64,000 nt of DNA. It comes from Hippasteria phrygiana. Its lineage: Eukaryota; Echinodermata; Asteroidea; Valvatida; Goniasteridae. The notes beneath the pieces were generated by a model, which ran no database searches, was not told where the DNA came from, and saw nothing but the letters and a program-made list of their open reading frames with translations. The stretch's first letter is position 1; every line of letters begins with the position of its first letter. The DNA lies in assembly GCA_037893225.1 (NCBI GenBank), contig JAZGUH010000199.1, forward strand, positions 3,410,001 to 3,474,000, written 5' to 3'. This document shows, piece by piece, positions 974-52,475 of this stretch. The position numbers and the translations under genes are program-made.

Positions 974-21872
<20,899 letters not shown>

Positions 21873-29641: not shown

Positions 29642-32600
29642 CTAGTGCCTATTGGCCAAGATTCTGTAGTCCCTTCTGACGTAGGGCAAGTAGGCGTGAA
29701 ACTCCTGGAATACAAACAGTGTCCGCACGTTCCGTTCCTGTGTTGTGACGTTAGTAGGGAAAGGTGGAATGGAAGACTCAAATCTTATGATGTGGGCCTC
29801 TTCTCCTTGAAGAAACAACTGGGGGAGAACAAATAACACCGACATTTAATGACTTCAGAAATTACTTAAGTGATTTAATGTTGATAGATTATGAGATGTG
29901 AGTTTGGCATTGAATGTTTTAATTGTAGACGTCCACTGCAGATTCCGGCGTTACTTGGCGCTAAGTTGTTGTTTATAATCCCGAACAAATAATCCTGTGA
30001 TTTGGCTTCTTTTTGCCTCACAGGCTCTCGAGAAGTATTGAACAATATCAGTGCTATTAAGTTAGCCAACACCGGGAAAGGGAAACTCCTCGTGTCATTT
30101 TATTGACCATCCGTCGTGTGACGGTTTTGCGTGCACTTATCACATGAATCCGAGTGTAAACGTGATTCGTGCGCTCTGTCACCGCAGTATTTGTGATGAG
30201 TATTGTCGCAGCTATTGTTGAACATGGTCAAAACACTGCAACAGCCGAAAATGCGGTGGTCAATTCAACAGTGTGCCAGAATTCGTGTTCAAGAAAGTAT
30301 AAAACAGTAATTTGCTTTTGCTGTAATGTTCAGAAATAGCAAATAAAGTTTTATGTGCAAAGCGCATATAGATGCTGGGGAAAAAGGAGAAAAATGCCGT
30401 TCTTGTCGCCTGGTTCCCTAACCCGACAAAACGGAGTTATTTATAAACGTCAGGAAATTATCGGGTCGGGGAACTAGACTATTTCCAACGATCGCTGGAA
30501 ATTGATAGACAAAAATATATCAAATTTTCTTAAAAATGACACTCCCAGCACACCATTGTGCCATGATTTCACAGGATGCTTGAGACTATTATTTACTTTA
30601 AATAAAATAAGATATCTCATAGGAATTCAATAGTTTTGATTTTTGATGTTTGCAAATGTTGTATATTTTCTTTAACACGTGATGACGTCATTGCAATCAT
30701 TGCATGGATTAATACCTAATAAGTTAACAGGCCCACGAAAGCTATTTCATTCTTGCTTCCTCTTTCCGAAACAGTTAAGTATTGATTAAGATATTTTCAT
30801 GTTGTGACGAGTTTCTAAATCATAATTATTATTATAATGTTTGCCAGGGTTAGCTGTTGAATTTTACCTTTTAATTTCGATAGGATGACTCTTGCTTTCT
30901 GCCATAATGGCCTTCACAAGCACAGCCCACCCCAACCTGTTTGATTCTTGTCTTTCGTTAGTGTAGGCTAAAAATCAAACTTTTTGAGAGAAAGATTTTA
31001 CTTTTTTGCCCAACAACAAAGAGTCAGAACAGGAAAATCTCCGAACATAATCCATTCTTGTTCAGAGTATGCAAAGGTGCACAGCGTGTGCTCATACAAA
31101 GTCTACACGTATTAATTTTAGACTTGTATTTTCTTTTACGTATTTTGCTAAATAAAAACTTAAGTAAAGTAGGGAGTGCCATTGTGAGAAAATGGCCAGC
31201 CCGACAGGTGTAGTTTCTTTTATAATAATAATAATTGTGCCACGTGTTGGAGTAAAACAGCAAGTTTCACTCCTATAGTGTATAATCAAAATGAGAGGAC
31301 CCTCTGAAGGCTTCCCATATTTGTCTATTTCCGGTCCTTTATGATGAGTGATTCAACGTAAAATCTTTTATTTTCGAGTTCCGGCAAGATGCTGACTTAC
31401 CGTGATATCCGCCCGCTCTATGACTAAGCGCAGTTTTTGTAGAACCACCTCAACGCTCCCCGAGACGTTGGCAGTTTCGCTCTCCTTCACTCTTTTTAGC
31501 GTGTCTTTGAAGAGAACGAGGTTGTTGTAGTGAAGGATGACCAGCTCTGAATCCTGAAATGGATAGGACAAGAGGATGATTAGCGTCTGTGTAATACTTA
31601 GTGCTGTTGTCAAGGATGTGTTCTGTTTGACAACAGTTGTGTCAAGATGGATACTAAAATAGAGAATAATATGTGAGAATAATTTATGAAGCGAACATGT
31701 CGCTACATTATTACCCCTGCTCATCAGGCCTATCAATCATTCCTGAAACCTCAGCTAAGTGGGGAGTATACAGCCCCGGCTGCAAGTTAAGCACACTCGG
31801 CTAATCAAACACATAACCATAAGTTACTCCTGGGTGGAAAGAAGCAATTGTGACAGTGTCTTGCTCTAGGACATATCAAGCGAACCAATAATTCGTAGTA
31901 TCACCCGGACCTCTACTCCAGTGCACCAGACCAAGAGACTACGGCTTTAAGCTGAAAGAGAAAATGGCCAGCCCGACAGGCATGCGGCAAACGGGCGACT
32001 CTGCTCGGAATAATACCAAAAGGGCGACGCGCGAGTTGCCCATTTAGAGCACTTTCACCACGCACCCTACTAAAATACACTCCAAATGGGCGACTTTCAC
32101 AATGCGGCGACAGTTATGTGTCGCCCAATTCGACCGCGTCGCCCGAACCCACTCTTTTCGAGCATCATGTGTCGCCCCAACCGGCAATTGAGGAAAATTG
32201 TGCCACCTATGAGAGTGACACAGCAAGTTTCACTCCAAGAGTGTATAATCAAAATGAGAGGACCCAAGCCGTAACAGTAGTCACACTCCTGTATAAATCG
32301 TTAACCTCATACTTTCGATGATCTTTTGTCGACCGAAGTTCAAACCACTTCACTGCACAAAGAGGAAGTTTGCCTTTCTTGTTAGAGAAGAGAGAGTGGC
32401 CTCATATAATATAACAATGCCTTACAATATCCCGTCCCATTGTGGTTTGCTCTCCAATAACGAGTCTTTATTTGATTGTGCCTGACGTCAGACTGACACG
32501 AAAACGTCACCCATGCGTGCTTTATCAAAACAACTTTCCACCATACTCAATGGAATGAGAACAACTTTTAGTTACGGCTCATTTGGCACAATTCAACAAA

Positions 32601-35600
32601 ATCGTCCTTGTACGGGGTTAATGTTGCCGTGGCAGTTTTCTAATGTGTTATATTACAGGCGCATTTTTTCACTAATCAATCGGATAATGATTTGCAGTGT
32701 TGCTGTTAAACTTGATGACGTCAATGTCTTCCCTTCCATCTAGAATATTTCACAATTCAAACGACTTGTGAATAGATACCTTTTATCCCTGTGATTTCTG
32801 TCTGCTCTTGTCTTTTGTAATTGTAGCCCACACCTTGAGTGGCCTCTTTGGCCTGGTGTTGGGAGATTCCCAATACACTTTCCCACGTCTAGTGAAGCAG
32901 AGATGTATTGGAGTCCATCACAAGTCCCTGCAAGTCCATCACAAGCCCTCCAGTCCTAATCCCAATCACAAGCTATTCAAATGAGCTTTGACAAAGGCAT
33001 TCATTTGTCATTGTTCATCCAGTTACTTGTGACCGGTTTTATGAAAGGACTTCTGACTGGACTTGCGAAAGGACTTGTGAAAGGACTTGCCGGGAGTACA
33101 ACTCTGCTGTGAAGGCCTGTACCGTCACCTTCATCTTGTTTATTGTAAGTCTTATTATTAGAGACCTTGAAAGGGATTACCTGCATTAACCGAAAGCAGT
33201 CATTTTTTTTTTTTGTACAACAACGGGCCTACCACAACAAAATTTCCTTCAATTAGTCACGATTTGGATATTCCAGACTGACGTCATTAAAACCCAAATA
33301 ACGTGACCCTTGCGAAGCACAAAACCCGTGACCAAAACATGTCCCCGTTTAGGCGTCCAAACCGCTCGGGTTTTTCACCGTCCTTGCGAAATTGAGAAGC
33401 ACGACAAAGCGCTTCTTCCCCGGCGGGTGATAATATATAGTAAAACTTAAAATTAATCTGTACTTTTAATTGAAGAATAGGATGAACAATTTGTGGATTA
33501 CGGACTCAGTCACAGTGGATTGAACACAAGAATTTTCAAATTTCTGCTAACTAGGAACCCAGTGCGTTATCAAGGCTGTTATTTTTGTGCTCACATAATT
33601 ATTTTAACATATATAGTTTAAAGATATACTTTCCGTACTCTTTTGGAGTTTCTCCCCGATTTTTGTATTGTTATTTTCTAGCAATGCAAAAAACAAAGCA
33701 CACTGGAAATACTTGGAAATCGGCATTTTGGCTTTTTTCAGTGTTACAAAATATAACAAATTTTGTTTGAGATCATAATATTAAGAAGTTACTTTTTTAT
33801 GCAACTTTCATTTTTTGGGGTAATATTTTGAAACGGAAAAAAAATCAAAAATGCGGATTCCCAATTTTGAAACAAGTATTTCCAGTGCTGTTAAAAGTTA
33901 CTGTATCCAGTTTGAATGAGGCGTGGAATAAAAAATTAGTTCATTTTTAACTGTCGAGTTTCATTTTTTTGCCCCTTTTTAGGATTTAAAACCCCAAACA
34001 TGCATTCAGAACCGTGCCTGACTTTTCAGGAAAAAGCGACCGGTGAAAATCCACAGTTAAAAATAAACGTCACGTGCAATTTGACGTTGAAAAATCAGAA
34101 AAAGAGCGATTTGATTTGCCTACCGAGTAGCTCTGCCTAGAGTTTCTGTCCGGGAGATTGTGCTCATTTGGCAGGTGCGCCAAACCCATGGGCCTGTCTC
34201 GAATCACAGGCTCCGGGTCATTGGCGAAACGGTCGTCCTTCTGGAGAAAGGTAAGAAAAGAGAATTAGAGTTAAACTTTCACTTATGTTTGCAATTTCAA
34301 TGACTTGAACAAAAAATGATAGCCCTGGTGGATTGCTTGTAACTGGTGTACAGCGGTACATCTTTGTGTTTACGTAATGCGTCTTCTAAATCTTCATAAC
34401 TTGTACCATGGAGGTATCCATGCTTGTACACAACGACGAGTTTAACGCCGATCTGCGCACTTCCGCGTTTGAAAACGAGGATCTCAGGGTGCACTACACT
34501 AATTCATGTCCGAATTTATGCGCCAGCTCATCAACATAAAATGTTTACCCCACAACTTTTTTTGAAAAAGGAGAGTTTGTGCCTCCAAAAATTGTGGGAT
34601 TGTGTAAACATAGCCCAGCATCAACTCCCTGGTTTCTGGGCTTCCATCTGTGTGCAGACTTGATAAAATTACTGTTGAAAAATGGGTCCTATTTGCCCGA
34701 GAAAGTGGAGGGATGCCATGTTAAAAATTTGGAGGTGGGTTTGTTTTGTGTCAATAATTAAAAATGTAATTGGTTAATAAACAGATGCACTGTGCTGCGT
34801 CTGGCAGGGTTAGGGTTATCCCTAACCCTGCCAGACGCAGCACAGTGCATCTGACAGCTTGGCCTTGCTGCACTCTGCACACAAGTCAATGTGACAAAGT
34901 ATGCAATCGGACAGGGTTTCTAGCCAAAATACACTGGAGGGTTAGGGTTTAAAAGTGACATTTGTTTGTGTAGACCCCAGTGATGCTGGGGTACAGGTTA
35001 TTTGGCCCTGAACTTTGTTGATTTTACACGGTTGTCAATGGGAGCTTGAATTAGTGTGGTGCACCCCTCAATGTCACAGTAAACAACTTTATGCTGATCG
35101 TGCGCCTGCTCTGCCTTATATGGCTTATGCATTAATGAATGTGCTGAAAAGCGTTGTTTTGTTTGCCACTGCCATTCTCGCTTTCAACCCGGAAGTGCGC
35201 AGAAGGGGCCAATGTGAAATTCCTCTATTAGCAGTTGTGTTTGAGACTTGTCAGTTTGTGTTTTGTGTCATTTCGCCTTTGAAAAAAAATATGTTGGATC
35301 GACGTCAGACCCTCCAACTTTCATCAACTTAATTACTGTAGCAGTTTAGAAATCGTCTGTCATACTGCATGTAAACATCGACCTGTGTCGGTGTGTACTA
35401 CACTTGAACTTTGGAAAACCAAACAGAATTTTTTTTTCAGTGCAATGTGATTTGCAGAATTTGGGTGCAGAAATTACCGCGGTCTTAGCTTTCTTTAAAA
35501 TAGCTGAATGGATATACTCACATAACTCTGAAACAGTACTCGATGCTCTCCAAAGACTTCGGCTACTTGCTGATGGAGGAAACTGTAATGTACATTGAGG

Positions 35601-35872
35601 CTTTCGGATATGGTCTGTCCGTCCAGCAACAGGCCAGGACTGAGACGCGGACTTGGCGAGTAGGCCGGGATCGTTGATGGAGACTCCCCCGTGGTAGGGA
35701 CCCGAGTCTCGACGGGGGCACCTGTCGCGGAGCCAGCTGAAACACCTGTTGTCTGGTCCGCTGACCTCCGCAGTCTTGCCAGAAGACTCGTGGGGACTGG
35801 CGATGCGCCGATACCCACCAAGGCAACCCCGATGAGAAGGGTGGACAGCACTAACCTTGCCTGCAGTTGCAT
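29642..35872 (-). CDS. Secreted IL-6/CNTF-like helical cytokine candidate A, 4 exons, 265 aa
   Basis: Exons in transcript order: 35522-35872, 34124-34240, 31401-31553, 29642-29818 (117, 39, 51 and 58 codons plus stop). Every intron is phase 0 with GT-AG borders. Signal peptide: residues 1-23, then S-P. A basic site RLRR|SAD ends at residue 36. Residues 40-84 are Ser/Thr/Pro/Gly-rich. Four helical segments can be read: A 86-117, B 158-180, C 188-206, D 238-262. Helix D reads VRTLFVFQEFHAYLPYVRRD, like the CNTF/CLCF1 last helix (KVLQEL..W). N-glycosylation sites are at N185 and N230. No cysteine anywhere. It probably acts outside the cell on a gp130-like class I cytokine receptor. It is a paralog of the gene at 47940-52475. 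The gene structure is strongly supported; the cytokine family is an inference from architecture. Confidence 0.85.
30298..30675. mobile_element. TTAA MITE (GTAGTAT family), copy 3, inverted
   Basis: In inverted orientation it carries AATTTGCTTTTGCTGTAATG, GGTTCCCTAACCCGACAAAA and GTGCCATGATTTCACAGGAT, and ends ATTTTCTTTAA. It lies in intron 3 of gene A. Confidence 0.65.
31189..31303. repeat. Dispersed repeat, short copy
   Basis: It starts AAAATGGCCAGCCCGACAGG and ends GTATAATCAAAATGAGAGGA. The same two ends bound the longer copy at 31961-32265 in the next intron of the same gene, so this is a deletion derivative or partial copy. Confidence 0.6.
31961..32265. repeat. Dispersed repeat, longer copy
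   Basis: Same ends as 31189-31303 but with an extra GC-rich middle containing short inverted units (GGGCGACTTTCAC, GTGTCGCCCAATTCG). It is a non-coding element in intron 2 of gene A. Confidence 0.6.
32898..33107. mobile_element. ACTTG-rich MITE, copy 2, inverted
   Basis: It runs CAGAGATGTATTGGAGTCC to GGGAGTACAACTCTG and is the reverse complement of the element at 10056-10279. Intron 2 of gene A. Confidence 0.7.
34441..35212. mobile_element. Large inverted-repeat element with nested MITE, intron 1 of gene A
   Basis: The left arm has GATCTGCGCACTTCCGCG and TGCACTACACTAATTCATG. The right arm has TTGAATTAGTGTGGTGCACC and CCCGGAAGTGCGCAG. The element at 34782-34951 is nested inside. A related end is seen at about 25215-25245 (CTCTCAAACCCGGACGTGCG). 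Confidence 0.5.
34782..34853. repeat. Perfect 34-bp-arm palindrome
   Basis: The arm CAGATGCACTGTGCTGCGTC(TGGCAGGGTTAGGG) is followed by TTAT and then its exact reverse complement. It arises from head-to-head ends of the AACCCTAACCC MITE whose body continues to about 34951 and which is also found at 4781-4926. Confidence 0.9.
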
Positions 35873-35970
35873 AGTTGCCAGTTCTTCTTTTTCTCTCGGA
35901 TGAAGTTGAAAGCTCTACTTATCTTGGCACCCAACTTTTGAATGATTGAGACATGAACTGATGGGTGCGT

Positions 35971-35978
35971 TTTAAATA
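35971..35978 (-). promoter_or_regulatory. TATA-like box of cytokine-like gene A
   Basis: Read on the - strand this is TATTTAAA, about 100 bases before the ATG at 35872. It leaves room for a short 5' UTR, as expected for an inducible secreted-factor gene. Sequence match only. Confidence 0.35.
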
Positions 35979-38900
35979 CATGTCTGACATCCGCCACTAG
36001 CGGTGGCGGTATCATTAATAGGCTTTGTTTGTGCTATCCACATATTTTGGGTATGCCGTGTGCTAAAATTATGCGATTACACAGCGTGGGTGATCGCTTG
36101 CACTACCGTCATGAACTGTCGCATGGTGACTACCCGCAGCATAAAGCCATGACGTCACGGGATACCCAGAAGTCTGGCGCTGAATACCGTGGGGAAATAC
36201 CCAAACACCGGCGACGCTTCTGTGTCCACACATAGTTGTACACATGCATGGTTTGAATGGTGTACGCATTGGAGTCGCTGATCCGAGGTCAGCGTTTCGT
36301 ATAGTTCTTTGCACTGTGATTATACCATGGAGGTATAAAAAGGATACAAAGCCCGTTTGTTCACAGCCCATGAGATCCGTTTTGTGATCTCACTTTGACC
36401 AAAGGGAACATCGATAATGGGGTACCAGTAGTCATGCACGCGATGGCGTGTCTTATTATTGATAACATGCCGGATACATTTGTCGATAATTTTAACGGTG
36501 TAATTTATAACTGTCGTTTGTCAATGGTCACTTTCTAGCGAAAACGTAGGGCCTACTCAGGGTTTTGTCGAATTTTTGTGGATTTTTGTTTGGCCAATTT
36601 TCGAGCTTGACAGCATCCCAACTGGGATCTCGTATATTTAGTTAAAGGAAACATGCTTCTCAAATTGACCGGATCACATTTTATTTCCTAAATAAATTCA
36701 TTTATATGTATTAAATGTGAATTAAAAGCCAAACTGGTTCAAGTGAAGTTTTAGTGTGATTATTTGCCGCTAAAAAATTGACCCCCCCTTTTTGAAATTT
36801 GTTGAGACTCAAATTGAGGGCGCTGTTCGTGACGTAGACCGAGGCACCGAAATTCATGGATCGACTCGATAGTCTGGACCCGGCCCGTATACACACACTA
36901 GGTCTACACGTGCAATTTCGTAAGTTGCAGCAACAACTAACATCGAACTTACCCTGATTTTCTCCCTTTTAGCGAAGGCTCCTCGGGGAATGGGCCGCTT
37001 AACTGCATTTGCCTATATCTTACTCACATCTGGAAACTTTGTTGGGATGGCAGTGGACTTGAGCATATTTTTAATGGTCATCCCAAAGGATTTGAAAATA
37101 CCAGTATCGAAACACGACGGCTCAAAGTGGTCGCTACATAATGCTGAGAAGCTGCTGGGGCCGGACCACTACGCTCTTGTCACCTTCACTTTCGCCGTCC
37201 AAATTCTCCGATATTTGTTTTGCTGCACCCAGCAGCCACACACCTTGTCGGCATGGCCGAAAAACACTATATTTTGCTTAGATTTTGGACGAAGAATTTT
37301 CGCCGTACAATGTACACACAAAGCATACCCGTGATGAATGGGTAATGTGCCTCGATCTACGTCACACACTTATGTTAATAAGGGTCCCACTCAGGGGGCG
37401 GAGTAGCTTGGACAAACATTTTCAAAAATTGTTTTCTCATATTTAATCTGGGAAATAATTGTCTCTGGACACAAAATATCATTGTCAAGATAATACTTTA
37501 TTGTTTTAAGCAGGAATAATGCAATATAAATCCTAAATCATGTTTCCTTTAAGGTTAGAAAAATGGTATTAAAATTATACAAATTTTTTGTGTACTTAAT
37601 TTTGTATTTTAATTATAATTTTTATTTCATTTGGTTTTATGATTTTAATTTGTACTCTGCAAAAGGGATTGTATACAAAAAGAAACACCTTGGCACTTCA
37701 TTGGTTTTCGTCATGGAACAATTGCTTGATTATAAACGCTATCGACAAATCAGCCGGCGCCATTAGTGCAGATTATATTCCCCAATTTGGCTGTGTGACG
37801 ATTAACGTTTCAGTAGGTTGTGAGTTGGTTGTTTTTTTTCACTCGTCAGTGGAAAATAATTTTGCAATCGGGTAGGCCTACAAACTTAGTTTGGCTTTGC
37901 GGTTTAATGTGTGCGTTCATTCAATTCATGCTGAATTGAGCAAGTGTGGTGAGATCAAGATTGTCGGCTGTCCCGAATGCTCCGACGATTTCATATTTTG
38001 TCATTCTCATTTTTTGCTGAAGGATGATGGATTTTCCGAATGTTGTATTTAATTTCGTCACATCCAAGAACTTGCACAATTCATTTTAACCACAAAAAAA
38101 ATTAAATAGAAATACTGGAAATAATTTCGTAAGTTCGAAGTTCTTCTATAATGTACATTTCCCGCTCTAACTTGTATCAGTGATTTCACGCCATTCTAGT
38201 TAATAAGTAGTTGGTGACATATATTATTTAATTTTAATTGCAGTAAATACACATTTGGTGCACGCTACTATGAACTTCTCGAATTGCCATCAATAATGAA
38301 GGAATGTGATAAGTAAATATACAACGCCTAAAATAAGTTTTGAACGTTAATTTTGCGTTCGTTTTTAACGCTCCGCATGCTCCCAAACGTTCTGTGTGGT
38401 CACCCCATCCCCAAATAAAGTCGCCTCTTGTTACCGGTACTGTGCCTCGACAACTCAGGATGTTTCATGCCTTACTAGGCGAGGCAGGGTGAAAACGAAA
38501 GGAGCTTATAGGACATCCTGGAATGAGTCGGTAATAATTAGTTTATTTTTTATTATTTATTTTAATTTTATTTCCTACCAGATCCTGTTTCCATAGCTCA
38601 TACCTTTCACAAAAGAAGCCCCGTGGAACACGATTTCTAGCCACAGTGAAAAAAAATCCTAATTTCCATAACCGGAAGTTATTCAGTTAACAATAAAACA
38701 ACAACAAAATCTTGATTTAATTTATTCGTGATGAGCATGAGAAATTTCCAGTATGAAACAACTACATGTACCGGTACTCTTGCCTCAACTTATACCCAGT
38801 TGAGCAATGTTTGGTCTATTGTGCGCCGTGTATTCAGCCTTTGATTGGGTATGTGACTTTCGTTTTGACTCTTCCGGGAACTAAACATTTGAATGAAATG

Positions 38901-40625
38901 GAACGACTGAGTTATCGTGCAAAGCTTGATCGGTTTGCGCAGGCGCGCAATACCGAAGAAAAGGTTTATGAAATAAACGATAAACGGAAATAATGACATT
39001 AATTAAAATGAACAAAAGTCAAAGAAAAGTAATTATTGTTAAATGTCCATGCCTGATTTCCATTTTTTAGAAACACACAACAATTTCAGATTTAGGCCTA
39101 GATTAGTTAGATCACTGAAGAAAATAGAATGGAAATTATTTCACAAATGCGTAACCATTCAAAGGAAGTCAGTAAGATTGTGAACATTTCTCAAGGTAAT
39201 GTTTCAGTTTGTCACTATAGAATGACCAAATCAATTAAATGAATGATAAAATCACCAATCTCCACGAGACTTAAGTGACACAGCAATAAAAATGAAATCT
39301 ATTCCAGTTGTTGCAGATGTAAAATTGAAATTAATAATATTAGGAGCCCAACGGTGTCGTAGAACGAAATTAAAGTTAAATATTTGTCCACCGAATTTGT
39401 ATGAGTCAACTAATTATAAGTTTTTTTTGTTAAGACGTCTTGCTGATTTCAGGATTATTTTTTGGTTTAGATTGTTTTGTTTTTATCATTCTTAAATGAC
39501 CTCTGCGACCCGAAACAGTCTTCTTTTAATTCTGATGACCCTATTTTTAGAATTTTGAACCGTTTCTTTTGGTAGAAAATGCGGTTTTCTTATGCATTTT
39601 TCAGCAACGCCATACAAATTAAATGCCTCCGAGGTTTCGTGGATTTTATATTTTTCTTAAATCTCGCCCCTGTAAAATGGCATGAAAAAATACTTTAATA
39701 GCAGAACAGGAAGTTGAAAGTCGTAGTAAATTGGCTAAAAAGGTCCACGATATGGCTTTAAGCTCTTAGCATTCTATTTCGACGACTCTTCAAACTATTT
39801 CCCGTTGTTTTCTCACGTAGTGGTGACCTGTCGTAGTACGTGACAAGCATTCTGACAGGAAAAGTGTATCAATAGTATGTGTTGGCTAGTAATGCGTTGC
39901 CCTTGGACACGGATCGTAAACAACACCAACCTTAAATTTGGCCCGGATGCCGGTATTTATTTTTGCAAACTGAATTGAATCGAAATTCGTGGTATATGGA
40001 TCGACAGCATACCGTGAGACCAATGTAATTATAATTGAACAGGACATTGTGTGGGGCATTGTAGGGACTGCTTTTTTCCTATGCCGTCGTATGTAGCAAA
40101 AACAAAACAATTTTTATTTTTTTTAAGGAAATTCCCTAAGGAGGAATTAAAACTGCAGTGTCAGTGCTTTTTGGACTTGTCACCCCGAAAAAAAACAACC
40201 TTTTAATTGAATTTCTAATTTGTTTTGAGTTTTCCAATGTGACATTCCACACACACAAAATCAGCCACTGATAAGTGACGGGTGTAAGAAGTTTTCAATT
40301 TAGAGTTAGGAGCGGTACGATCCTAATTCTTGCTGTTAATGTATTGGGCAATCTTTGCGCATAGAACATAACAATTATGGGGTGTAGAGTGTATAGTGCT
40401 TTTTCGTTCAAAAAGCGCTCCTGCCAACGCGTGCATTTCACTTTTAGCGACGTCTGTCTATACGCATTTTTTACCAATGACCTATATTAGGCATTTTTTT
40501 TTTATTGGTCAACAATATTGTGTGCAGTTTACATAAAATACAAAACATATTACAAGGAACATCGTTTGAAATCCCCAACATAATATTATTTGAAACTGGG
40601 TTTTTTTCCTCATCACATAGAGACA

Positions 40626-41017
40626 TTAAAGGGAGTATACACAATTTGCTTTTGCTGTAATTTTCATAAATAAATGGGTTTGAGGGTTAGTATTTTATAG
40701 CGTGCTAGCAAATACTGCAACACTGACCTGTTTAAAGTTTTGTGTGTATAGATGAAACAGAGAGAAACAAATTATGTTCTAGTAGTCTGGTTCCCTGACC
40801 ATACTTTAGACAACACGGAGCAATTTATAGATATCAGGGAATTATCAGGTTGGGGAACTAGACTATTGTCGGCCGACAATCGTTGGGAAAACGATATAAA
40901 TTTCCACTTTTCTTGAAAACGACAGCACACCAGGTGCCATGATTAACAGTCTAGTACCGGTACGGTATTTCGTAATAGTTCAGTAGTTTTGTTTTTTGAT
41001 GTTTGCAAATGTTACCA
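40626..41017. mobile_element. TTAA MITE (GTAGTAT family), copy 4, inverted
   Basis: It starts TTAAAGGGAGTATACACAAT and contains AGTCTGGTTCCCTGACCATA and GTTGGGGAACTAGACTATTG. The right end (TTTGCAAATGTTACC) is eroded. Confidence 0.7.
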
Positions 41018-41877: not shown

Positions 41878-42034
41878 TTAAGCCCGGTTCATACTTCATG
41901 CGCATGCGAATGCGAATGCGAATGCGAAGCGAATTTCTTGACGTCAACAATTGAAGTTTCATTGTGACGTTCTCCGTTACCTTGACGAATTCGCTTCGCA
42001 TACACATTCGCATGAAGTATGAACCGGGCTTTAA
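41878..42034. mobile_element. TTAA-flanked MITE, AGCCCGGTTCATACTTCATG ends
   Basis: TTAA at both borders. The left end AGCCCGGTTCATACTTCATG is inverted as CATGAAGTATGAACCGGGCT. It contains the hexamer run GCGAATGCGAATGCGAATGC. Degenerate relatives are at 47117-47300 and 48303-48476. Confidence 0.8.
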
Positions 42035-44427
42035 GGCATATACAATACTACAATGTGTTTCACTTTCTGTTTTAATTTACTTTTATTATCACTGTATTAT
42101 CTCGTACAATTTGTCTGATTACACTTCGATTTAATTTTTTTCTTTATGTTTATCTTACTATTTTATTTTCTCTCATTGAATGTGTTTACAAATTCTCTTT
42201 TAAACTTTTTAATTTTCTAGTTTAAAACATGTATTTGTTATTTTTTTATTGTACAATTTTAGCGTTGTTTTATGTTTTTCACTTCCAGTTTTAACTTACT
42301 TTTTAATTTATTTCACTTTAATTTATAGTGTATAATTCGTATTTTAAGCCTTTGTTTTTCATCTGGGGAGTGGTTCGAGATGAACTTTACAGTTTTTTTC
42401 CACAACCCTTGACATTGTCAGAAATTTGATGATAATAATAATAATAATACAATATTTCATGGTGACAAAATTTCACGCTACACCGGCGTTCGAACTATTA
42501 AGAGAAACCAGCTAAGAGTACGCTTGTTTCGTAAACGGGGTTTCCCCTATACTGTTTCTATGATATTGTCACAAGCTTACTCTCAAGGCAGATAAACCAC
42601 AACACACAGGTATTCTAGAAATCAAGCGATTGAAAAAAATGCTGATGTAAGACCACATCAATTTGTTTTGTTTAAATACGGATATCGACTTTTCTTTTTT
42701 TCCACCCAGAAAGTAATAGACTTTGACTCATAATGACGCAGTTGTGGTAATCAGTCCTGCATGGGACCAATTTTGCGGAGTTGTGAAGTGTTGGGAAGCT
42801 TATTCGACATTATTATGCATGCAATCATAAATAACCCCAACAAATTGATTTGCAAGAAATATTTACGGGATTGCAATAAGTTGACCACATGTCCCCAAGA
42901 AGTATACAGTGCCCAGAATTTTAACTTGTATAGTTACCCTTAAACGATACAGTGTTATTTGAACTCCCCCCCCCCCCCCAAAAAAAAAAAAACACAACAC
43001 AACAACAACAACAACAAGAAAACTTTAAGTTCGGCCAAACATTACGCATTATTATTGTTCAACATTGTTGTGTGTGCAGTCAACAGCGCCATTGATTGCA
43101 GGAATTAAGGCGTTATACGGAATTTCAATAAGTTGACGCACTTTTTCAAAAAAGTGTACAATGTTGATAATAATGTGGCTTTATTTACTAATTGAATACT
43201 GCTTTGAAATTACCTGGATACCAGGTATTTGAAAAACTTAATCCCCCACTCCCACCCCAACAAAATGCCTTTCGCACCGTTTCTGCAAAGTTCGGGCAAA
43301 CAAATTACAGCTAATTACTTGGCCATGACATGTGAATCGATCAAATTCAGAGAACCAAGTCAGTCTATACATAGGTCCCAATTGTTGCTTTCAAAGTCTG
43401 GTTTAACGGGGGTTCATTGCTGAGGTTCATTGAACGCGAATTCCCAACATAAAAGACACGAGCCGAGGAGGGCCATGCCATACAACGACGGAACACAATT
43501 TCTGGGCACTTGTGAACGTCAAACCTGAACTCGACCTCTGCGGCGAACTCGAGATGATCAGAAGTACAATTTGATATTTACGATGTGGGTGAAGAGTTTA
43601 TTGGTTTGCGTCGGTTATGGGAACTTAAGATCCCGGAAGTTTTTCACTGCGTTCAGTGTGGAAGTAGTTTGTAATCGAAAGGATTACAAATCCATTAAAT
43701 GGAGTGATATTAGAATTAACAATGCAGTACATTATCGGCATATTATTATAGTATTGTCGATTAGTGAATAACTTAATTGTAACAATCCTTTTTTGTCAAT
43801 ATTGTTACTTGTGGGCTGTTCCCAAATTTACCAACAGTTTTTATTTCGCGTGTGTTGCATTACTTAATGTTTAATTAACCCTGGCACAGTCCTGAATCCT
43901 CCAATTTTCAAGTCCGTTGTTCACACCACGTATACCAAAGGGAGTTGGGGTTAATTTTTAATCACTGATATAAACTCACTTGTTCACACTGCACAATCGA
44001 GATCAATACACTGAGGAACATTGATATCGTGCACGCTCATCAGGATCAGCAAGATTCGAGCTCCCAGTTCTGTTTCCTAGTCTGGTATCGTACGTCATCC
44101 AACTCGGAATTTAACTCTGGGGCTTTATGCACAAAATCAATGCGGAGGTACTCCCAAACTATACACGGTGGTTCAGAATGACGGGTTCTTTAGAGTGCCT
44201 GAAAAATATTTATAAAAGGGACCCTACCGGAAAAAAAGGTCTTGTCTGCCCGCGGCTTCATCAGCCCCACCGGGCATCTTGTATTGTCATTAGGTACCAT
44301 AGTGTCCATTTTGATCCGTTTGTGGAGTGCTATCGCCTAGTGCACTGGCCTCAACAGGTCATGCAGATATATAGTAGATCTATAGACGCGGCGAAATTTA
44401 TGAAAAGGTAACCTGAAGAGGCATTTT

Positions 44428-44596
44428 TACGGAAGCGTAGAAGGGCCACAGGAAAGTTTTTAAAAATGTGTTACGACGAGTTACCGTATCTCGCCGCGGC
44501 GAGATAGAAACACAATTTAAAGTAGGCCTAACTCGCCGCGGCGAGATAGTAACACATTTAAAAAAAACTGTCTTGTGGCCCTTCTACGCTTCCGTA
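44428..44596. mobile_element. MITE with TACGGAAGCGTAGAAGGGCC ends and two CpG palindromes
   Basis: The left arm TACGGAAGCGTAGAAGGGCC(ACA) is inverted at the right end GGCCCTTCTACGCTTCCGTA. Inside are two copies of CTCGCCGCGGCGAGATAG, each a self-complementary core. Confidence 0.8.
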
Positions 44597-45360
44597 CATT
44601 TGAATAATTTGTACTATTGACGTTATTCACCCACGTGACCAGATGAAATGTAAACAAAGATACCACGTGTGGACCGCCTTAGAGTGATGATAGTACACGT
44701 GTCGTGCGTGAACCGGCACGCTTGACTGATTTACTTGAATAAGCACTGTCCATGATGACACGTGAACAAGGTCTATCATGGCTTGTCTCTTCTTTTTTTT
44801 TACGGTTTCGTGACATGTCGGTATCATGCAGGAACGGTTTAGCCTCCCAAATCGGCGCGGTTTCTGTGTCGGTCAAAGAAAATGTGGTAGGTCCCTCGAA
44901 CCATGGAGGAAGTGCTCGAACTAATGTTATGAAGCGAGCCGTACTCATGGAAGACGTATAGAGGGTGTCTGTTGAATGGTGGTTGGGAAAAGTCAGGAGT
45001 TGGACACTGCTGGAGGTCACTAGTTCCGCTGCCGGGCATTTTTCATTCGCCGGTTCCTGTATTGTCAGCTTGTACGTATAAAACGTGTTTTCCAGCAGAC
45101 AACAGTGCAAACGCGATACCGGTACGCATAATTATCGCCCACAAGTTTCACCGGTGTCGCCATTTTCACAGCGCTGCATGTAATTAGCAAAGGTCATGGT
45201 ACGCTGCCCAGAATGCCGCGCGTTTCCTTCTCAAAAATCTCTGAAGCGCACGCGCATCAGACGTTCCTTGCGCCCTGTTTGGGCGGTGGATGGGCACGAG
45301 CGAAGGATGGTAATGTTTTATAACGCCCTCTGTTGATCTTTACATTGTTCTTATCAAGAC

Positions 45361-45604
45361 TTAAGGTGATTTCTCAAACCCAGGCTTCTGCTCGGGCTTC
45401 AGCTTCAGCTGCAGCTATTCCCCAGTCCCATTGCCAATCTGAAGCCTTGAATATGGAAATATATTTACAGACTCTGGCTCCGGAATAAAACATCAGACTT
45501 TGATATCAAAAACAGTATCCAAGATCTTGCCAAATCTGGGAACATAAAATTACGCGAAGCCGAAGCCCGAGCCCAAGCCACCGTTTGAGAAATGCCCTTA
45601 TTAA
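45361..45604. mobile_element. MITE with CATTTCTCAAAC-type ends
   Basis: It starts TTAAGGTGATTTCTCAAACC and ends CGTTTGAGAAATGCCCTTAT. The subterminal repeats GCTCGGGCTTCAGC and GCCGAAGCCCGAGC are also inverted. The TTAA at each edge suggests a piggyBac-type target site. Confidence 0.65.
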
Positions 45605-47116
45605 TGCAAAAGTGTAACCGTGTGACGAGAGCGCCCTCATGGTATCATTATGATCAAAATGTCGGGTATATGCAGTCTGCAACCGCATTAATGTCCAGTG
45701 ATTTCGTCCGTCCGACTGACCAACGCTTTCCTTTTAAAGAAGTGGACAACGCTGAACAGGCAAATGTGCGAAGTCAATAATGTTAGCACCTCAGTTGGTG
45801 ATTGTGAGTTAGTCAGATTTCGGCTGGTTTTTGTCTCTCTTGTCAATATTGAATCACTAGGATTAAGAAAGAACTTGCTCAAGTTTGAAACGTTAGGCCA
45901 GCTAATTTTGTTGATTTGTATATTTCAGGTCAATTCAGTCAGTTAGCAGTTTGCAGCAGTTTAATTAATTTGTTATTATTAAATCGTGATAGATTCTGTG
46001 AACGCCGCTTTTGCTGTATGATACTGCGTTTATTTCCATTTGAATTCTTTCTGATGATGATTTTCAATCAAAGAAATTGGAGAATCCTGGCTTCAAATCG
46101 ATTAATAATGGCAATAAAGCCTTAACTTAGACATATGGATGCAAAACCACGAGGGTCTTTCAAATGGGAAGTATAGCTGATTAATGGCAGTTTTAAAAAA
46201 ATATCGTGTTCAGATTTTCTCTACGGAAGAGGGGGTCTCTGCAAGCCACCAAAAACCAAACAAACATGTAATAAAAACCATATTTTCATGATTCATTTAA
46301 CATTTGTATCTATAGACCCACTGAGCTGAGGCTATCGTAGCCGGCATTGTAATTGACTGTAAACCTGCCCCACACTAAAAAACTTGGGGTTAAATTTACC
46401 CAATAATTTGTGGGTGAAACCTGCAAGTAACTAAAATTTGGGTAAACAGACTCTCATCCGATTGTGTTCAGATAGGCTTACCCAAATGTTGGGTATATAG
46501 TTGCAGTTTTCACCCACAATTGGATACATTTAACCCCGATAATTTTTCAGTGCACCCCTGTTTACAAAACATCCGAAAGAATGGAAAGCCGTGATTACCT
46601 TGTTTTCGTTTCGTCATTTTTCTTTGTTTATCCATGTTCCTCATTAATAGCTTTCCTAACATAAATATTGGCATACCAAGTAATTATAAATAGATGTTTG
46701 AAAATTCGAACGGAATGTGTTAAGATAAAATGCCTTAACTACCGTACAATGCTGTTAAATATGAATATAGAATATAAATATATCATACTTAAATATGCAT
46801 TTATATATAAATACTAATAAAATATTGCTCATATCGTAATACAAGTTCCTTCTTTCTATTACAAATTTGATAATTTCAATAAAACGCGCACTCATGACTT
46901 TTTGGTATAAATAGATAATTTCTAAAAAGATATTTGGCTCAAGTCGTGAAGAATTTTGATTGAATTAGTAGACAAGTTTAGTACACAACGGCATACTCGC
47001 TTAAATTCCAACATTATGAACAACAACGCAGTAAACAGTGAAGTATTAGTTTATAAATAAGTACACACACTTTTAAAATATAACACTACTGATGGGAATT
47101 ACCATCAGTGATTGAA

Positions 47117-47300
47117 TTAAGACCGGTTCATACTATACGCGAATGCGAAGACGAAACGAATGTGACGTCATGAAAGATTTCGCAAAAGTTGCAACGAATT
47201 CAACTTTATTTTCGAATTCGCAGCGGGAATGTTTTGCGCCGACTTCATAAATTGACTTTGCGTTCGCAAGCATAAGACGGCTTTTACGGCGAATATCGCC
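47117..47300. mobile_element. Degenerate relative of the GGTTCATACT MITE
   Basis: It starts TTAAGACCGGTTCATACTAT and carries CGCGAATGCGAAGACG and GCGTTCGCAAGC. The right end is eroded. It lies just downstream of cytokine-like gene B. Confidence 0.45.
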
Positions 47301-47939
47301 TTTCAAATTCACGCTCTTTATCAAGCAGTTATTGAAATAAATATGGATTACAATTGCGTTATCAGAATTATAATGCATTTCACGTACCCAGTTAATATTT
47401 TACCCGTACAATGTACTGGTTTTGCTAAAATGTATAAAGACTATATATCCTTTGTAGATTTCGTAAAATTTTCAGTGAAACAAAAATTTCTGTCCGAATT
47501 AGGACAAACCGGAGACGGCACCAGGCTTAGCTTTGTGATTTGAACATTGATGTCGTGAGTTATTCTTAATTTTATTCAGCATAAATTAAAAGCGTAAACG
47601 TTTCAGAATATACACTGAAGTACACACACGCGTAATCTAGTGATAAAATATTGAAATTCATTTTATGAAATTATGAAAGATTTCTTTGGACGATACTAAT
47701 ATTAATATTATTATAAAATACTAATACTTTATAATTATTTATAGACTCTCAATAAATACTATGTCGTCCCTGTGTTTTTGGCACGTTTTACGCTAAGAAA
47801 GTCACAGAATAATTGCGTATTCCTTGAATACAAAGAGGTATAAATAATTGGTACACGTTTGATACATCGCTGTACTTAAAATATTAAATATTAAAATAAA
47901 TATAAAAGTAGACTTTTAAACGCTTGAAGCGCTCAGGGA

Positions 47940-50900
47940 CTACTGGTGACGTCCATCGAGATCCACGTAGTCATCTACCACGTGTCCCATGTAGTCTTTG
48001 AACTCTTGCAGAACGTAAGTCGTGCGGTTGTCTCGCTCTGAGTTTTGGGAGTAGGTGCCGGCGGGTAAAGCTTCAAATGACAGGGTCGCGGCGATCGGGT
48101 TGAGCAATGAGCGCTGCATTAATTGGAAAGAAAGAAAGAAATAAATTTAAAGAGGCTATCCGTGCAAAAATTGGTGACTGAAAGTTTCAGTGTGGTTGAT
48201 TCCTCCGCTAATGAATTAGGGAAGAAAACTCAGTCTGTATTCTTGAACAGAAAATGCACTTTAAACACGGTGCACTTTGACCTAGTATGATGTGCTATAC
48301 AAGTAAAGGCCGGTACTTCGCTCGAATAATGCGAAGCGAACCAGACATAATGAAACATTCACGGCTAAGATTCGCACAAGTTGAAATGTGTTCAACTTTT
48401 GCGAATTCGCAGCGCTAAAATTTGGCGTTGACCTCATATATTCGCTTCGCATTCGTATTCGCGTGAAGTATTTTTTTCTTTTTCATGATGATACATCCAA
48501 AAACCAAAATGAGACCGGATAAGACCGGATAAGACTGAAATATGTACGCGACCTGATTTGTTATGCTATGTAATCGCCGTGTCATTATTGTGGTGGCCTT
48601 CGATTGTAGTGCCTTGTTTGATAAGTTTGTGTCTTATATTTAACGGTTGGCATGCAGCAATTCAACAAATAGTGTTTATATCCTTTTTCAAATGCAAATT
48701 TGAAGGAGTGTGTATAGGGAGAGAGCTCTTCAAATGAAAGCTGCGGTGGAATCACGTGATCGCACAAGGCTTCTCTCAATTAATTGCATGCGGCTCACCT
48801 TCCCTTATTATGAACAACAACAACAGCAGCAGCAGCACCACCAGCAGTTATTTTCGGTGGTTGTTTTCCTATTCGGTCGATTCACAACTCGGTGCGCCGC
48901 CAGCGGCAACCGGGGAGAGGCCAAATAACGCAGTGCATCATGGTAAAATTCGACATCGCAAAACCGGAAGTGGGTATCGCCAATGCATCGACCGTACTTC
49001 TTACACCCCTTCTCTGCTAAATCTATCAACTCCTCTCTCTTCTTTCTCGCACAAGGTATTCCCTGATTAGTCAAAAAATTGCTTTAACTCATCCAATCGG
49101 ATTCGCGCGAAATCCATACTGCTGTATTGTCCACCATCTAATACAACGCGACAGACGCGATGTCGACCTGAAAGTGGGAAATTGGCCTTTCCCGGCTTGC
49201 CGCTGGCGGCGCAGTGAGTTGTGAATCGACCGAATTGGTATCAGGTTCTCTTGACTAATGTACATACCACTTCTTCTAGTCGCTCTATCAGTAAGTCAAC
49301 TTTCCCAATAACGTCATTGAACCGGTCCTGGAAGTCGTCTGATTCCGTGTCTTTAACCGCCTGAAGAACCCGCCTAAAGTCGTGTAGCTCCTCGTAGTGG
49401 CGATCCGCAATCTCCTCGTCCTGCATAGCATTACATGTATATCATGTTGATTATATTTTACCTGATACGGTCGACCGATTTGGACATTTGAAAGGCCAAC
49501 GGGTGGTGCTATTAGTATTAATAATGACTTGGTTCAGAAAGGCTTAGACTGTTAGGGGGGGGGGGGGGGAGGGCGGGGGTTCCGCTTCGAAAATTTCTGT
49601 CAATGGATATAGCAATTCACTAAGCGTGTCGATGGCAAAGCTTATGCCGTATCCATTAAATACCGGATAGACCTATGTGCACCTTTTAAAAATGTCCATT
49701 GTTAGTATTTGAAGACACCTTATTAGGCCTACATCCTCTAAATAAGAAAACCTAAAGACGAGGGCGTGCTTCGTAGAAAGGTGTGAATATGGCGGACTAA
49801 AACAATGTAGATAGCCTAAGATATTGCCCGTTCGTGGTGGTAAGCACTTAAAAAGACCAACCAAAATGACATCGTCACGCCTTGTGCCTATTCAATAAAG
49901 CCTTGTGCCTATTCAGTAAGGCCCAGTGCGCTTTCAGTAATACATGACGATGTCGTTTTGGTGGTTCTGAAACAGTGCCTTCCGTTCGGGGGTAGCCTGG
50001 TTGCCGTCTTAACCCGCCATGTTGACATTCGCGAAGGGCGCCCTCGTTTTTAGGTTTTAAGGGTCCATTAACCCCTTGCGTACGGATGACGCCAAATGGC
50101 GCAAAAAAAGTGGCACCAGGCCGGATGACGCCATTGGCCGCTATTTGTGCAGTTTCAATCCATTGTTGGATTATTGTTTATGTTACGCTTGACTGCATAA
50201 ACACATTATGGCCGTTTCGCCTGGCTGGGAGAGCCGCAGCGACACCCTGACGTCTCAAGGGGTTTTAAGACTGATTGTGGCTTGGATGCTGACCAATAAA
50301 TAGACCAAAAATTGCCTACGCCGGCTAAATCACAATTTGCGACCCCTCAGATTCTCTGCTTTTAGAGCATTTTGAGTGCCATGAACTTGAGGGTTTGTAA
50401 AAGAGAAGGCTGAAAGCCGTGCACAGGACTGCCAGCTTGTATTACTGTGAAATTCAGAGGGGGGTCATCTTTAGATAGAAATTTCTCCCAAAAGTCGTCG
50501 GTTAATCCCAAAAAATTGAACAGAAACTGAAACAAAAAATTGATGAAATACACTTTAATTTGATGTGTGTCTCAAACACCTTGGAGAGTCCTAAGTATTT
50601 TTCCTAAATTTTGGAAGTTGGCGTATTTATTATTGGCGGTCTGTGGAAGTTGATATACGGTTGCACAGCAGTGCGACCGTACCGTTAGTCTGGTTCCCTG
50701 ACCTGAAGATTCCCTGACGTCTATATCTTAGGTCAGTTAGTCCGAGTGACGTCAGTGGCATCATTCAAATTTAATAATCTTGCAAAATCCAGTCGGCAGA
50801 ATACTGCAAGATAGAGTGGGGCATTGATGTTTCAGTTTTAATATATATTTGAGAATTCAAATTCCAGGATCTGTAACGGGCCTGACAGACATTTTGTGTT

Positions 50901-52475
50901 ATTGCAAACATCAACGTTAACAGCCGAATGTTACCAAAAACAAGTTCGGAAAACTTCAGATTTTTTTGGAAACTGGCAGAATTCTGCCAGTTTTCGTCAC
51001 GTGACATTGGCGGCTACCGGACCTCCATATGAAGCACGATATGGGGGAAAAGGGACCCCCCTCTTTTGTGTTGGTCATTGTGTTCCCGGAATCTCAGGAA
51101 TTCTTTTCAGAAATCTAGGGGGATGTGTTAGGTAACAATAGTCTGGAGAGTGTATAGGGTATAGGGATAAAAGGGGAGGGGGGGGGGGGGGTACCCTTTT
51201 CCCCCATATCGTGCAGGGTATCCGGACCTAATATTCGTCAGAAATAGTCAGAATATTTTGGTCTGCGAACCAGACTACCGTACCGTAAGAATACTCACCG
51301 AGACCATTGTGTCCTGCGTCGGCTGTGATGAAATACTCGGTAATACTATAGAGGGCGCTGTTAAATCACCTGCACCTACGAACGTGTCCACGTTATTGAA
51401 GCGAGCGCCCGTCTGTGAAGAACAACAACAACAACAACCACAGTTTAGATAATTTGGCGGTACCCACGTTGATTATATACTGACAGTTATGGCTCTGCAT
51501 GCAAAGTGCAAACGAGTTTTTCAGACGGTCCTTTTTTAGAGGTAGGACATGTGTGAAATTCTTATCAAAATGATGCTCATTGATACTCTCAAGAGAAAAT
51601 AAAGGGTTCAAGAGTTAGGAAGATTCTTTTCTCAATGATACTTATTGATACTCTCGAGAGAAATACAGGGTTCAAGAGTTAGGCAGATTATTTTCTCAAT
51701 GATACTTATTGATACTCTTAAGAGAAATACAGGGTTCAAGAGTTAGGCAGATTATTTTCTCTCTAATATGCAGTATTGGTTTGAATATGGAAAATGGAGA
51801 GCATTTGTGACCAGGCGCAACGAAACAGATGGAAAGTCGCAAAAGTTGCAAATTGATATTATGGTATTTCCTGAAGGTAAAAGCAATAAGCCTGTTTTCC
51901 TTCCTCCATGCATGATTTGATGATGTGTGTGTTGCTGTAGTTTATACCTATAGTCCCTGCTAACCTTTTGAAGCTGAGTTTCAATCCGTTGTTTTAGGAA
52001 ACTGAAGCGCAAAGTTAGAGAACTTTGCACAGTTTTAAAAAAGAAACCAAAATATTTCGAGATTGAATTGACTGTTAAAATTTTGAAATATGATACAATA
52101 GGGCTTTTGAAATGTAAAAGATGTTAAAATCCCAAATTTGACTTTCTAATAATAAAAAAAACTGCTATTTTTCGCTCAATTCGTGCTGGCAGGCCGCATC
52201 TGGATGACATAGACTTTGCTGCCATGCCATCACAGCAAATTTACTTTCAAGAACGAGTCGTAAATACTCACGTAATCCTCGTGGAGACTCCTGACGGACT
52301 TCTCCACCCTCTTGGCGTTTTCCGATAGGAAAGAGATGTGCCTATCCAATTCGTCGGCACTCCTCGAGGCACGATTATGCTGACTCAGGAGGTGCAGGGG
52401 CGATGCCGTGGCGAACCTCATAAGGTACACAGCGGCAAAGATCGCGAGAAAAACAGAACGTCTGCACTTAAACAT
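47940..52475 (-). CDS. Secreted IL-6/CNTF-like helical cytokine candidate B, 4 exons, 214 aa
   Basis: Exons in transcript order: 52272-52475, 51299-51412, 49268-49420, 47940-48113 (68, 38, 51 and 57 codons plus stop). All introns are phase 0 with GT-AG borders. Signal peptide: residues 1-24 (MFKCRRSVFLAIFAAVYLMR...), then S-P. The processing-like site RASR|SAD ends at residue 38. Helices: A about 41-68 (ends VRSLHEDY, compare CLCF1 LRSLAGTY), B 107-130, C 138-157, D 187-208 (TTYVLQEFKDYMGHVVDDY). An N-glycosylation site is at N186. The only cysteine is in the signal peptide. Its length fits the family (CNTF 200, CLCF1 225). It aligns with gene A in every exon, including HY..L..F in helix B and IER at the end of helix C. 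It probably acts as an extracellular signal. Gene structure is strongly supported; the family is inferred. Confidence 0.87.
48303..48476. mobile_element. Degenerate relative of the GGTTCATACT MITE, intron 3 of gene B
   Basis: Ends AAAGGCCGGTACTTCGC and ATTCGCGTGAAGTATT, with TTCGCTTCGCATTCG inside, relate it to 41878-42034. Confidence 0.5.
48868..49238. mobile_element. Inverted-repeat element, about 50-bp ends, intron 3 of gene B
   Basis: The left arm has ATTCGGTCGATTCACAACTC and CGCCGCCAGCGGCAACCGGG. The right arm has CCGGCTTGCCGCTGGCGGCG and GAGTTGTGAATCGACCGAAT. Non-coding. It ends only about 30 bases from exon 3 of gene B. Confidence 0.75.
50068..50267. mobile_element. piggyBac-like MITE (TTAACCC family), intron 2 of gene B
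   Basis: It starts TTAACCCCTTGCGTACGGAT and ends CTGACGTCTCAAGGGGTTTTAA. It is the best preserved member and the reverse complement of 11412-11629 along its length. Confidence 0.75.
51571..51766. repeat. Three tandem copies of a 64-65 bp unit, intron 1 of gene B
   Basis: The unit includes TTGATACTCT(C/T)(A/G)AGAGAAA, GGGTTCAAGAGTTAGG and AGATT(A/C)TTTTCTCAATGATA. Copies two and three are nearly identical. Confidence 0.8.

What the first reader, a model, noticed from the sequence alone, without database searches (positions are those of the whole stretch)
29642..52475. Tandem pair of IL-6/CNTF-like helical cytokine genes in an invertebrate
Two same-strand genes, 12 kb apart, encode small secreted proteins that match each other exon by exon. 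The proteins are very divergent in sequence but share length, signal peptide, four helical segments and intron phases. The last helix resembles the receptor-binding helix D of CNTF, CLCF1 and CT-1. As far as I know, ligands of this superfamily are well described in vertebrates, with the distant Upd proteins in insects, while invertebrate deuterostome ligands are poorly known. This pair could be such an undescribed signalling system.
Basis: partly seen in the sequence, partly recalled or inferred. Interest (0 to 1): 0.95.

Follow-up and report, generated by a model that had tools for sequence, protein, structure and literature searches.

The report
Starfish IL-6/CNTF-type cytokine gene cluster
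A genome that is very likely a starfish's carries a small cluster of genes for secreted proteins that, from their predicted shape and gene layout, appear to belong to the same broad class of signals as our interleukin-6 and ciliary neurotrophic factor, a class best known from vertebrates.

Summary
Minus-strand genes A (52475-47940, 214 aa) and B (35872-29642, 265 aa) each have four exons, GT-AG phase-0 introns and near-equal exon sizes after exon 1. They are 31% identical over 178 residues. B has an unnamed, 51% identical ortholog in the starfish Acanthaster planci, so the window is very likely from another starfish. A third paralog, C, lies about 11 kb beyond the window.

Against: no single-sequence search is significant, several profile subsets fail, FxxK is absent; expression, JAK, STAT and binding are untested.

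Best reading: a starfish cluster of IL-6-type cytokines, probably signalling through that receptor. Fold and kinship are well supported; ligand activity is inferred.

The parts
52272..52475 (-). Gene A exon 1: signal peptide (by eye), RASR-SA site, helix A
   Evidence: its last 31 residues align with B (0 of 1000 shuffles)
51299..51412 (-). Gene A exon 2: AB loop (38 aa)
   Evidence: weakest exon in the A-B comparison (19 of 1000 shuffles as good)
49268..49420 (-). Gene A exon 3: helices B and C (51 aa)
   Evidence: also found by a whole-genome search with the Acanthaster protein (E 0.57)
47940..48113 (-). Gene A exon 4: CD loop and helix D, stop codon
46940..47939 (-). Downstream of gene A (transcript end not mapped): AU-rich elements; TATTTAT 5 times in 1000 bases, mean 0.43 in shuffles
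   Evidence: 1 of 300 dinucleotide shuffles reaches 5; in the first 500 bases 3, 1 of 300
35522..35872 (-). Gene B exon 1: signal peptide (by eye), RLRR-SA site, variable linker, helix A
34124..34240 (-). Gene B exon 2: AB loop (39 aa)
   Evidence: weak there, E 6.9
31401..31553 (-). Gene B exon 3: helices B and C (51 aa)
29642..29818 (-). Gene B exon 4: CD loop and helix D, stop codon
35765..35776 (-). RLRR, furin-like site also present in the Acanthaster protein (RLRR-SA)
   Evidence: processing is inferred
52362..52373 (-). RASR, RxxR-type site at the matching place in A (RASR-SA)
   Evidence: read by eye from the sequence; processing is inferred

Best explanation
A and B (with C beside them) are a tandem family of secreted long-chain class I helical cytokines of the IL-6/CNTF type in a starfish. 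Each is made as a pre-protein, is probably trimmed at an RxxR site, and folds into an up-up-down-down four-helix bundle without disulphides (the mature parts of A, B and the Acanthaster protein hold no cysteine). By analogy with IL-6 and CNTF, the bundle would bring together gp130/LIFR-like receptor chains, activating JAK bound at a box-1-like motif and STAT through YxxQ motifs in the receptor tail. AU-rich elements after the stop codons suggest short-lived, inducible mRNAs. Shown: gene structure, paralogy, one ortholog, and presence of a gp130/LIFR-like receptor gene. Predicted with good support: fold and superfamily. Inferred: secretion and processing, receptor pairing and signalling.
Against: No Pfam family reaches its cut-off for A, B, C or the Acanthaster protein. 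Only the Acanthaster protein has a cytokine as best Pfam hit (IL11, E 0.08); A's best is FMP23 (0.0061), C's is ICAT (0.19), B has none. Sequence or profile searches of PDB find no cytokine, though human CNTF does not find its own relatives that way either. Single-sequence hhalign is at noise level for CNTF (15 of 36 shuffles as good). The profile signal weakens or vanishes for some subsets: LIF+OSM 0.69 and IL6+GCSF 0.34; CLCF1+CT-1 without CNTF 0.055 or worse, B+Acanthaster alone 0.025-0.029, A alone 0.023-0.033 against the three-member profile; C alone 0.33 against CNTF+CLCF1+CT-1 and 0.41 against CNTF+CT-1. Best Foldseek E is 0.017, none at 0.001 or below. The layout match is to IL-2, a short-chain member (recalled), so it argues for class I, not for the IL-6 branch. 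Helix D lacks FxxK. JAK, STAT, expression and binding are untested.
Confidence: 0.83

Rival explanations
1. They are long-chain class I hormones of the growth hormone, prolactin or leptin branch rather than of the IL-6/gp130 branch, and act through a simple homodimeric receptor.
For: Growth hormone, prolactin and leptin chains are among the fold matches. GH+PRL+leptin against B+Acanthaster aligns 125 columns collinearly at P 0.038 (0.099 in the other mode). GH+PRL is reached by only 3 of 100 column shuffles. The exon layout is not specific to the IL-6 branch.
Against: CNTF, IL-11 and CLCF1 rank first. GH+PRL scores higher when reversed, and no hormone profile is below P 0.038. The receptor found has an Ig domain and a LIFR/gp130-type module.
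Confidence: 0.08
2. They are unrelated secreted helical proteins (for example lipid carriers or structural coelomic-fluid proteins) that reached a similar bundle by convergence.
For: Helical bundles are common folds; sequence searches give no significant hit. For the weak model, bacterioferritins and BAR domains mix in from rank 12 on.
Against: Apolipoprotein, ferritin and globin profiles stay at P 0.019 or worse over 34 columns or fewer. The listed fold matches of the better model are all class I cytokines or hormones. Three phase-0 introns fall at the class I cytokine positions.
Confidence: 0.06
3. They are class II helical cytokines (interferon or IL-10 type).
For: IL-10+IL-22+IFN-beta against A alone gives P 0.011-0.012 over 22 columns, the best profile outside the IL-6 type.
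Against: That match covers one short helix out of register (query 104-125 against 143-164 of 167). With all four proteins it is 0.027.
Confidence: 0.02
4. Gene models are wrong or the genes are dead.
For: No RNA evidence was available; A has no known homolog elsewhere.
Against: Intact frames and good splice sites, AATAAA/ATTAAA signals downstream, an end-to-end ortholog of B in another starfish, and conservation of the same positions in A, B and C.
Confidence: 0.01

Closest known systems
CNTF / CLCF1 / CT-1 (IL-6-family cytokines that bind LIFR)
   Different: Has a signal peptide, unlike CNTF (recalled); lacks the FxxK motif at the start of helix D; identity to CNTF chains 12-18% in structural alignments.
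IL-11, IL-6 and G-CSF
   Different: No significant sequence match; IL6+GCSF+IL11 profile P from 0.0072 to 0.73 depending on query and alignment.
Insect Unpaired (Upd) ligands of Domeless
   Same: Secreted, helical, invertebrate ligands of a gp130-like receptor (PMC7378365, passages).
   Different: Not compared here: no Upd sequence was at hand.
Uncharacterized protein LOC110976436 of Acanthaster planci
   Same: End-to-end ortholog of B, 51% identity.
   Different: Unnamed; no function assigned in the sources shown.

Membership tests
Long-chain class I helical cytokines | Four-helix up-up-down-down bundle with long AB and CD loops | tested here: met
   a prediction of the Acanthaster ortholog with pLDDT 58.3, pTM 0.48; A, B and C themselves were not folded
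Long-chain class I helical cytokines | Exons = signal peptide+helix A / AB loop / helices B+C / CD loop+helix D, phase-0 introns | tested here: met
   with helix positions, boundaries agreeing within a few residues; published layout for IL-2 in PMC6070626 section 22; the IL-6 layout is recalled only
Long-chain class I helical cytokines | Secreted (N-terminal signal peptide) | tested here: inconclusive
   hydrophobic N-termini read in the sequences; no predictor was run
Long-chain class I helical cytokines | Binds a class I cytokine receptor and activates JAK/STAT | not testable with these tools
   a receptor gene is present; JAK and STAT searches did not complete
IL-6/CNTF/LIF family | Profile similarity to family members above controls | tested here: met
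   only CNTF-containing profiles reach P below 0.001; not LIF+OSM, not CLCF1+CT-1; CT-1 sequence recalled
IL-6/CNTF/LIF family | Match to a curated Pfam model (IL6, IL11, CNTF, PRF, LIF_OSM) above cut-off | tested here: not met
   human CT-1 as recalled also falls below the cut-offs, so this is not decisive
LIFR-binding subfamily (CNTF, CLCF1, CT-1, LIF, OSM) | FxxK motif at the N-terminal end of helix D (recalled) | tested here: not met
   read by eye in the CNTF register: S..D in A, Q..N in B, A..N in the Acanthaster protein, S..N in C (sequences)
gp130/LIFR-type receptor (C684 gene) | Ig domain followed by cytokine-receptor module | tested here: met
   Ig_3 33.3 bits over 30; LIFR_D4 33.8 over 25 and IL6Ra-bind 26.2 over 24.3 on the next exon; the fn3 pieces stay below cut-off (E 0.015, 0.17), one piece has no match; exons not joined; in the genome scan IL6Ra-bind scored 23.5, under cut-off, and rang in 0 of 14 control genomes
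gp130/LIFR-type receptor (C684 gene) | WSxWS motif | tested here: not met
   no match to W[ST].[WY][ST] in six frames of 29.7 kb; the expected exon carries VWSNKS instead

The most novel reading that the evidence does not exclude
Starfish possess a homologous IL-6-type axis: a tandem cluster of true class I long-chain cytokines and a gp130/LIFR-like receptor with YxxQ motifs. IL-6/CNTF-type ligands would then predate the split of echinoderms and vertebrates, and would be the missing ligands of invertebrate deuterostome gp130-like receptors.
Probability: 0.75. Interest if true: 0.88.

Novelty: new member of a known kind. Interest (0 to 1): 0.82.

Why it matters
A 2026 survey by BLAST (identity 30% or more, E 1e-5 or less) reports IL-6 only in jawed vertebrates, while IL6R-like receptors reach back to molluscs and include a sea urchin; [quoted passage not shown] A 2012 paper says the sea urchin has no apparent cytokine receptor signalling system (PMC3296744, passages read). 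An echinoderm ligand cluster with a candidate receptor would give such receptors a ligand, date the origin of IL-6-type cytokines, and give starfish immunity and regeneration research a directly testable signal. It also suggests that similarity searches alone can miss such genes where gene layout plus predicted structure find them.

Tried and rejected
Single-sequence hhalign against 13 vertebrate proteins: at noise level for most, so not used. LIF (19.1), IL-10 (17.5) and G-CSF (15.5) exceeded all 36 of their shuffles, but over 10-15 columns only, and reversed IL-10 scored higher (19.2).

Sequence and profile searches of PDB: no cytokine. Control: human CNTF finds only CNTF chains and chance hits.

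PF01291 in the own genome: none, but the control genomes rang nowhere either, so it says nothing.

Protein searches for homologs of A and with residues 84-253 of the Acanthaster protein: nothing new. The whole-genome search with the Acanthaster protein missed A's exons 1, 2 and 4 and gene C, so it does not exclude further paralogs.

A first structure model was too weak by itself (pLDDT 41.7). No class II cytokine is among the 50 listed rows, which excludes nothing.

C533 hit (E 0.21, three stops): regarded as chance, not followed.

Gene C's exons 1-3 were not found by HMM at a useful E-value (exon 3: E 6.2); they were picked by eye from open frames and splice sites.

Pfam on ten other window ORFs (of 43 listed): one match, below cut-off. 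Rfam: none.

Paper searches for an echinoderm IL-6-type ligand: none seen in the listings, in an open-access library only.
Full report
What is there. On the minus strand of the window lie two four-exon genes. A runs 52475-47940 (214 residues), B runs 35872-29642 (265 residues). All introns are GT-AG and phase 0. After exon 1 the exons encode 38, 51 and 57 residues in A and 39, 51 and 58 in B. The proteins align at 31% identity over 178 residues (E 2e-15; 0 of 1000 shuffles). Conserved columns in A, B and the Acanthaster protein include HY..L..F...L..V in exon 3 and RT..V.QEF..Y...V..DY..L..R in exon 4.

Whose genome. With B, the only protein found at E 1 or less in a 5.8-billion-sequence collection is the uncharacterized LOC110976436 of the crown-of-thorns starfish, 51% identical from end to end (E 2.1e-68, 2491 candidates). 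A found nothing, and a search with residues 84-253 of the Acanthaster protein found only itself. The window therefore very likely comes from another starfish; its assembly is 944 Mb in 1285 contigs. In that whole genome the Acanthaster protein finds B's four exons, A's exon 3, and one weak, interrupted hit elsewhere (6 matches at E 10 or less). It missed A's other exons and gene C, so further paralogs are not excluded.

A third gene. HMMs made from the A, B and Acanthaster exons, run over the window plus 10 kb on each side, recovered A and B and one new exon 4 on the same strand at about 71.3 kb (E 0.0014). With more flank (134 kb in all) and that exon added to the model, a second, identical copy appeared at about 74.8 kb. 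Upstream of that second copy I picked matching exons by eye from open frames and splice sites (the HMMs did not find them at a useful E-value): 77551-77399, 76103-75996, 75681-75508, 74866-74681 in window-extended coordinates (window base 64000 = C199:3474000), joined by phase-0 introns. The first of these begins inside the signal peptide, after a 3' splice site in phase 1; the exon with the start codon was not located. A phase-1 intron at that place is what I recall for vertebrate IL-6, G-CSF and growth hormone genes. The duplicate near 71 kb is 100% identical over 679 bases and 99.75% over a further 1216: a very recent duplication or an assembly artefact.

Fold. The Acanthaster protein was folded with separately aligned exon translations of the window as extra rows. 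With B's exons alone the model was weak (pLDDT 41.7, pTM 0.31). With A's exon pieces added it rose to 58.3 and 0.48, and to 74-79 in helices B and C. Both models have helices at about 71-111, 145-169, 172-198 (178-198 in the first) and 221-252: long AB and CD connections and a short BC link. Exon boundaries, carried over from B by alignment, fall within a few residues of the module boundaries: signal peptide and helix A, AB loop, helices B and C, CD loop and helix D. That is the layout published for the class I cytokine IL-2, with three phase-0 introns (PMC6070626 section 22, read). IL-2 is a short-chain member (recalled), so this speaks for class I as a whole.

Sequence kinship. Single sequences give nothing: PDB searches and single-sequence hhalign are at or near noise. 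Human CNTF is equally unable to find CLCF1 or LIF in PDB, and human CT-1, as recalled, falls below Pfam's cut-offs, so the test is blind at this distance. Profile against profile does better. Starfish A+B+Acanthaster against CNTF+CLCF1+CT-1 gives P 8.7e-5 over 156 collinear columns, with 0 of 100 column shuffles reaching the score. In the same call: CNTF+CLCF1 0.0087 (0 of 100), CNTF+CLCF1+CT-1+LIF+OSM 0.002 (0 of 100), IL6+GCSF+IL11 0.012 (0 of 100), but IL6+GCSF 0.34 (19 of 100) and LIF+OSM 0.69 (63 of 100); controls GH+PRL 0.095 (3 of 100), EPO+TPO 0.22 (11 of 100), globins 0.41 (24 of 100), ferritins 0.69 (77 of 100). In 160 comparisons (16 target profiles, 5 query sets, 2 alignment modes) the six with P below 0.001 all contain CNTF; the best profile outside the IL-6 type is IL-10+IL-22+IFN-beta against A alone at 0.011. 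The signal depends on combining members: against the three-member profile B+Acanthaster alone gives 0.025-0.029 and A alone 0.023-0.033, and CLCF1+CT-1 without CNTF gives 0.055 at best. Adding gene C, found without any vertebrate sequence, gives P 2.5e-4 for CNTF+CLCF1 over 152 columns and 3.7e-5 to 7.8e-5 with CT-1; 0 of 200 column shuffles come near (maximum 22.0 against 35.8). C alone gives 0.0011 against CNTF+CLCF1, but 0.33 against CNTF+CLCF1+CT-1, 0.41 against CNTF+CT-1 and 0.58 against CLCF1+CT-1. These P-values are not corrected for the number of comparisons. In Pfam the Acanthaster protein's best family of 24,736 is IL11 (E 0.08, below cut-off); A, B and C have no cytokine hit.

Receptor. 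The IL6Ra-bind family finds one sub-cut-off exon in the genome at C684:415428 (E 0.052). Around it, on one strand within about 15 kb, lie an Ig-domain exon (Ig_3 33.3 bits, cut-off 30), that exon (given alone: LIFR_D4 33.8 bits, cut-off 25; IL6Ra-bind 26.2, cut-off 24.3), pieces resembling fn3 domains (fn3 E 0.015 and 0.17, below cut-off; one further piece without a match), an exon I read as transmembrane followed by IHIPDIKLP (box-1-like, by my reading), and a long open frame with two YxxQ motifs, YVKQ and YVTQ. WSxWS is not conserved (VWSNKS). The exons were not joined and the model is incomplete. JAK and STAT families could not be searched because the service did not answer.

Other hints. 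The regions after A and B hold more AU-rich elements than shuffles: 5 TATTTAT in 1000 bases after A (1 of 300 shuffles), 2 TTATTTAWW in 500 bases after B (1 of 300). Other counts in the same table are unremarkable, for example TATTTAT after B, 55 of 300. The mature parts of A, B and the Acanthaster protein contain no cysteine. An RxxR-SA site precedes the mature part in A, B and the Acanthaster protein (A by eye).

Verdict. These are most likely IL-6-type long-chain class I cytokines in a starfish: a tandem family of at least three genes, with a plausible gp130/LIFR-like receptor in the same genome. FxxK, the LIFR contact motif of the CNTF/LIF subfamily (recalled), is absent at the matching place in all four proteins (by eye), so they should not be filed as CNTF-subfamily members. 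In print, IL-6 is reported only from jawed vertebrates (PMC13203501, passages), and the sea urchin was said to have no apparent cytokine receptor signalling (PMC3296744, passages). I saw no report of an echinoderm ligand in six searches of an open-access library. Function remains to be shown.

Noticed in passing
window-extended 77551-74681 (C199:3487551-3484681), minus strand, L015: Third paralog C of the cytokine family, outside the window; its helix D (FVLQEL) looks the most CNTF-like by eye. Its first coding exon found starts within the signal peptide after a phase-1 3' splice site.
   Followed up: yes
window-extended 71467-70789 = 75016-74338, and 70795-69582 = 73215-72000 (L014, L015): Identical partial copy of gene C's last exon and its downstream DNA (100% over 679 bp, 99.75% over 1216 bp): a very recent duplication or an assembly duplicate.
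   Followed up: partly
C684:413366-428475 (L008, L009, L011), plus strand: gp130/LIFR-like receptor gene: Ig domain, cytokine-receptor module, fn3-like pieces, transmembrane and box-1-like exon, long open frame with YVKQ and YVTQ; no canonical WSxWS.
   Followed up: partly
46940-47939 and 29142-29641, minus strand: AU-rich elements (TATTTAT after A, TTATTTAWW after B) above shuffles just after the stop codons, as in unstable cytokine mRNAs.
   Followed up: partly
helix D of A, B, C and P0001: An arginine seven residues before the glutamate of QE(F/L) is kept in all four proteins and could be a receptor contact; noted by eye.
   Followed up: no
35522-35872 (gene B exon 1): B and its Acanthaster ortholog carry a long, fast-evolving S/T/P-rich linker between the RLRR site and helix A that A lacks; possibly O-glycosylated.
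   Followed up: no
6567-6905, plus strand: ORF that looks by eye like the tail of a LINE-type reverse-transcriptase ORF; Pfam gave no match.
   Followed up: partly
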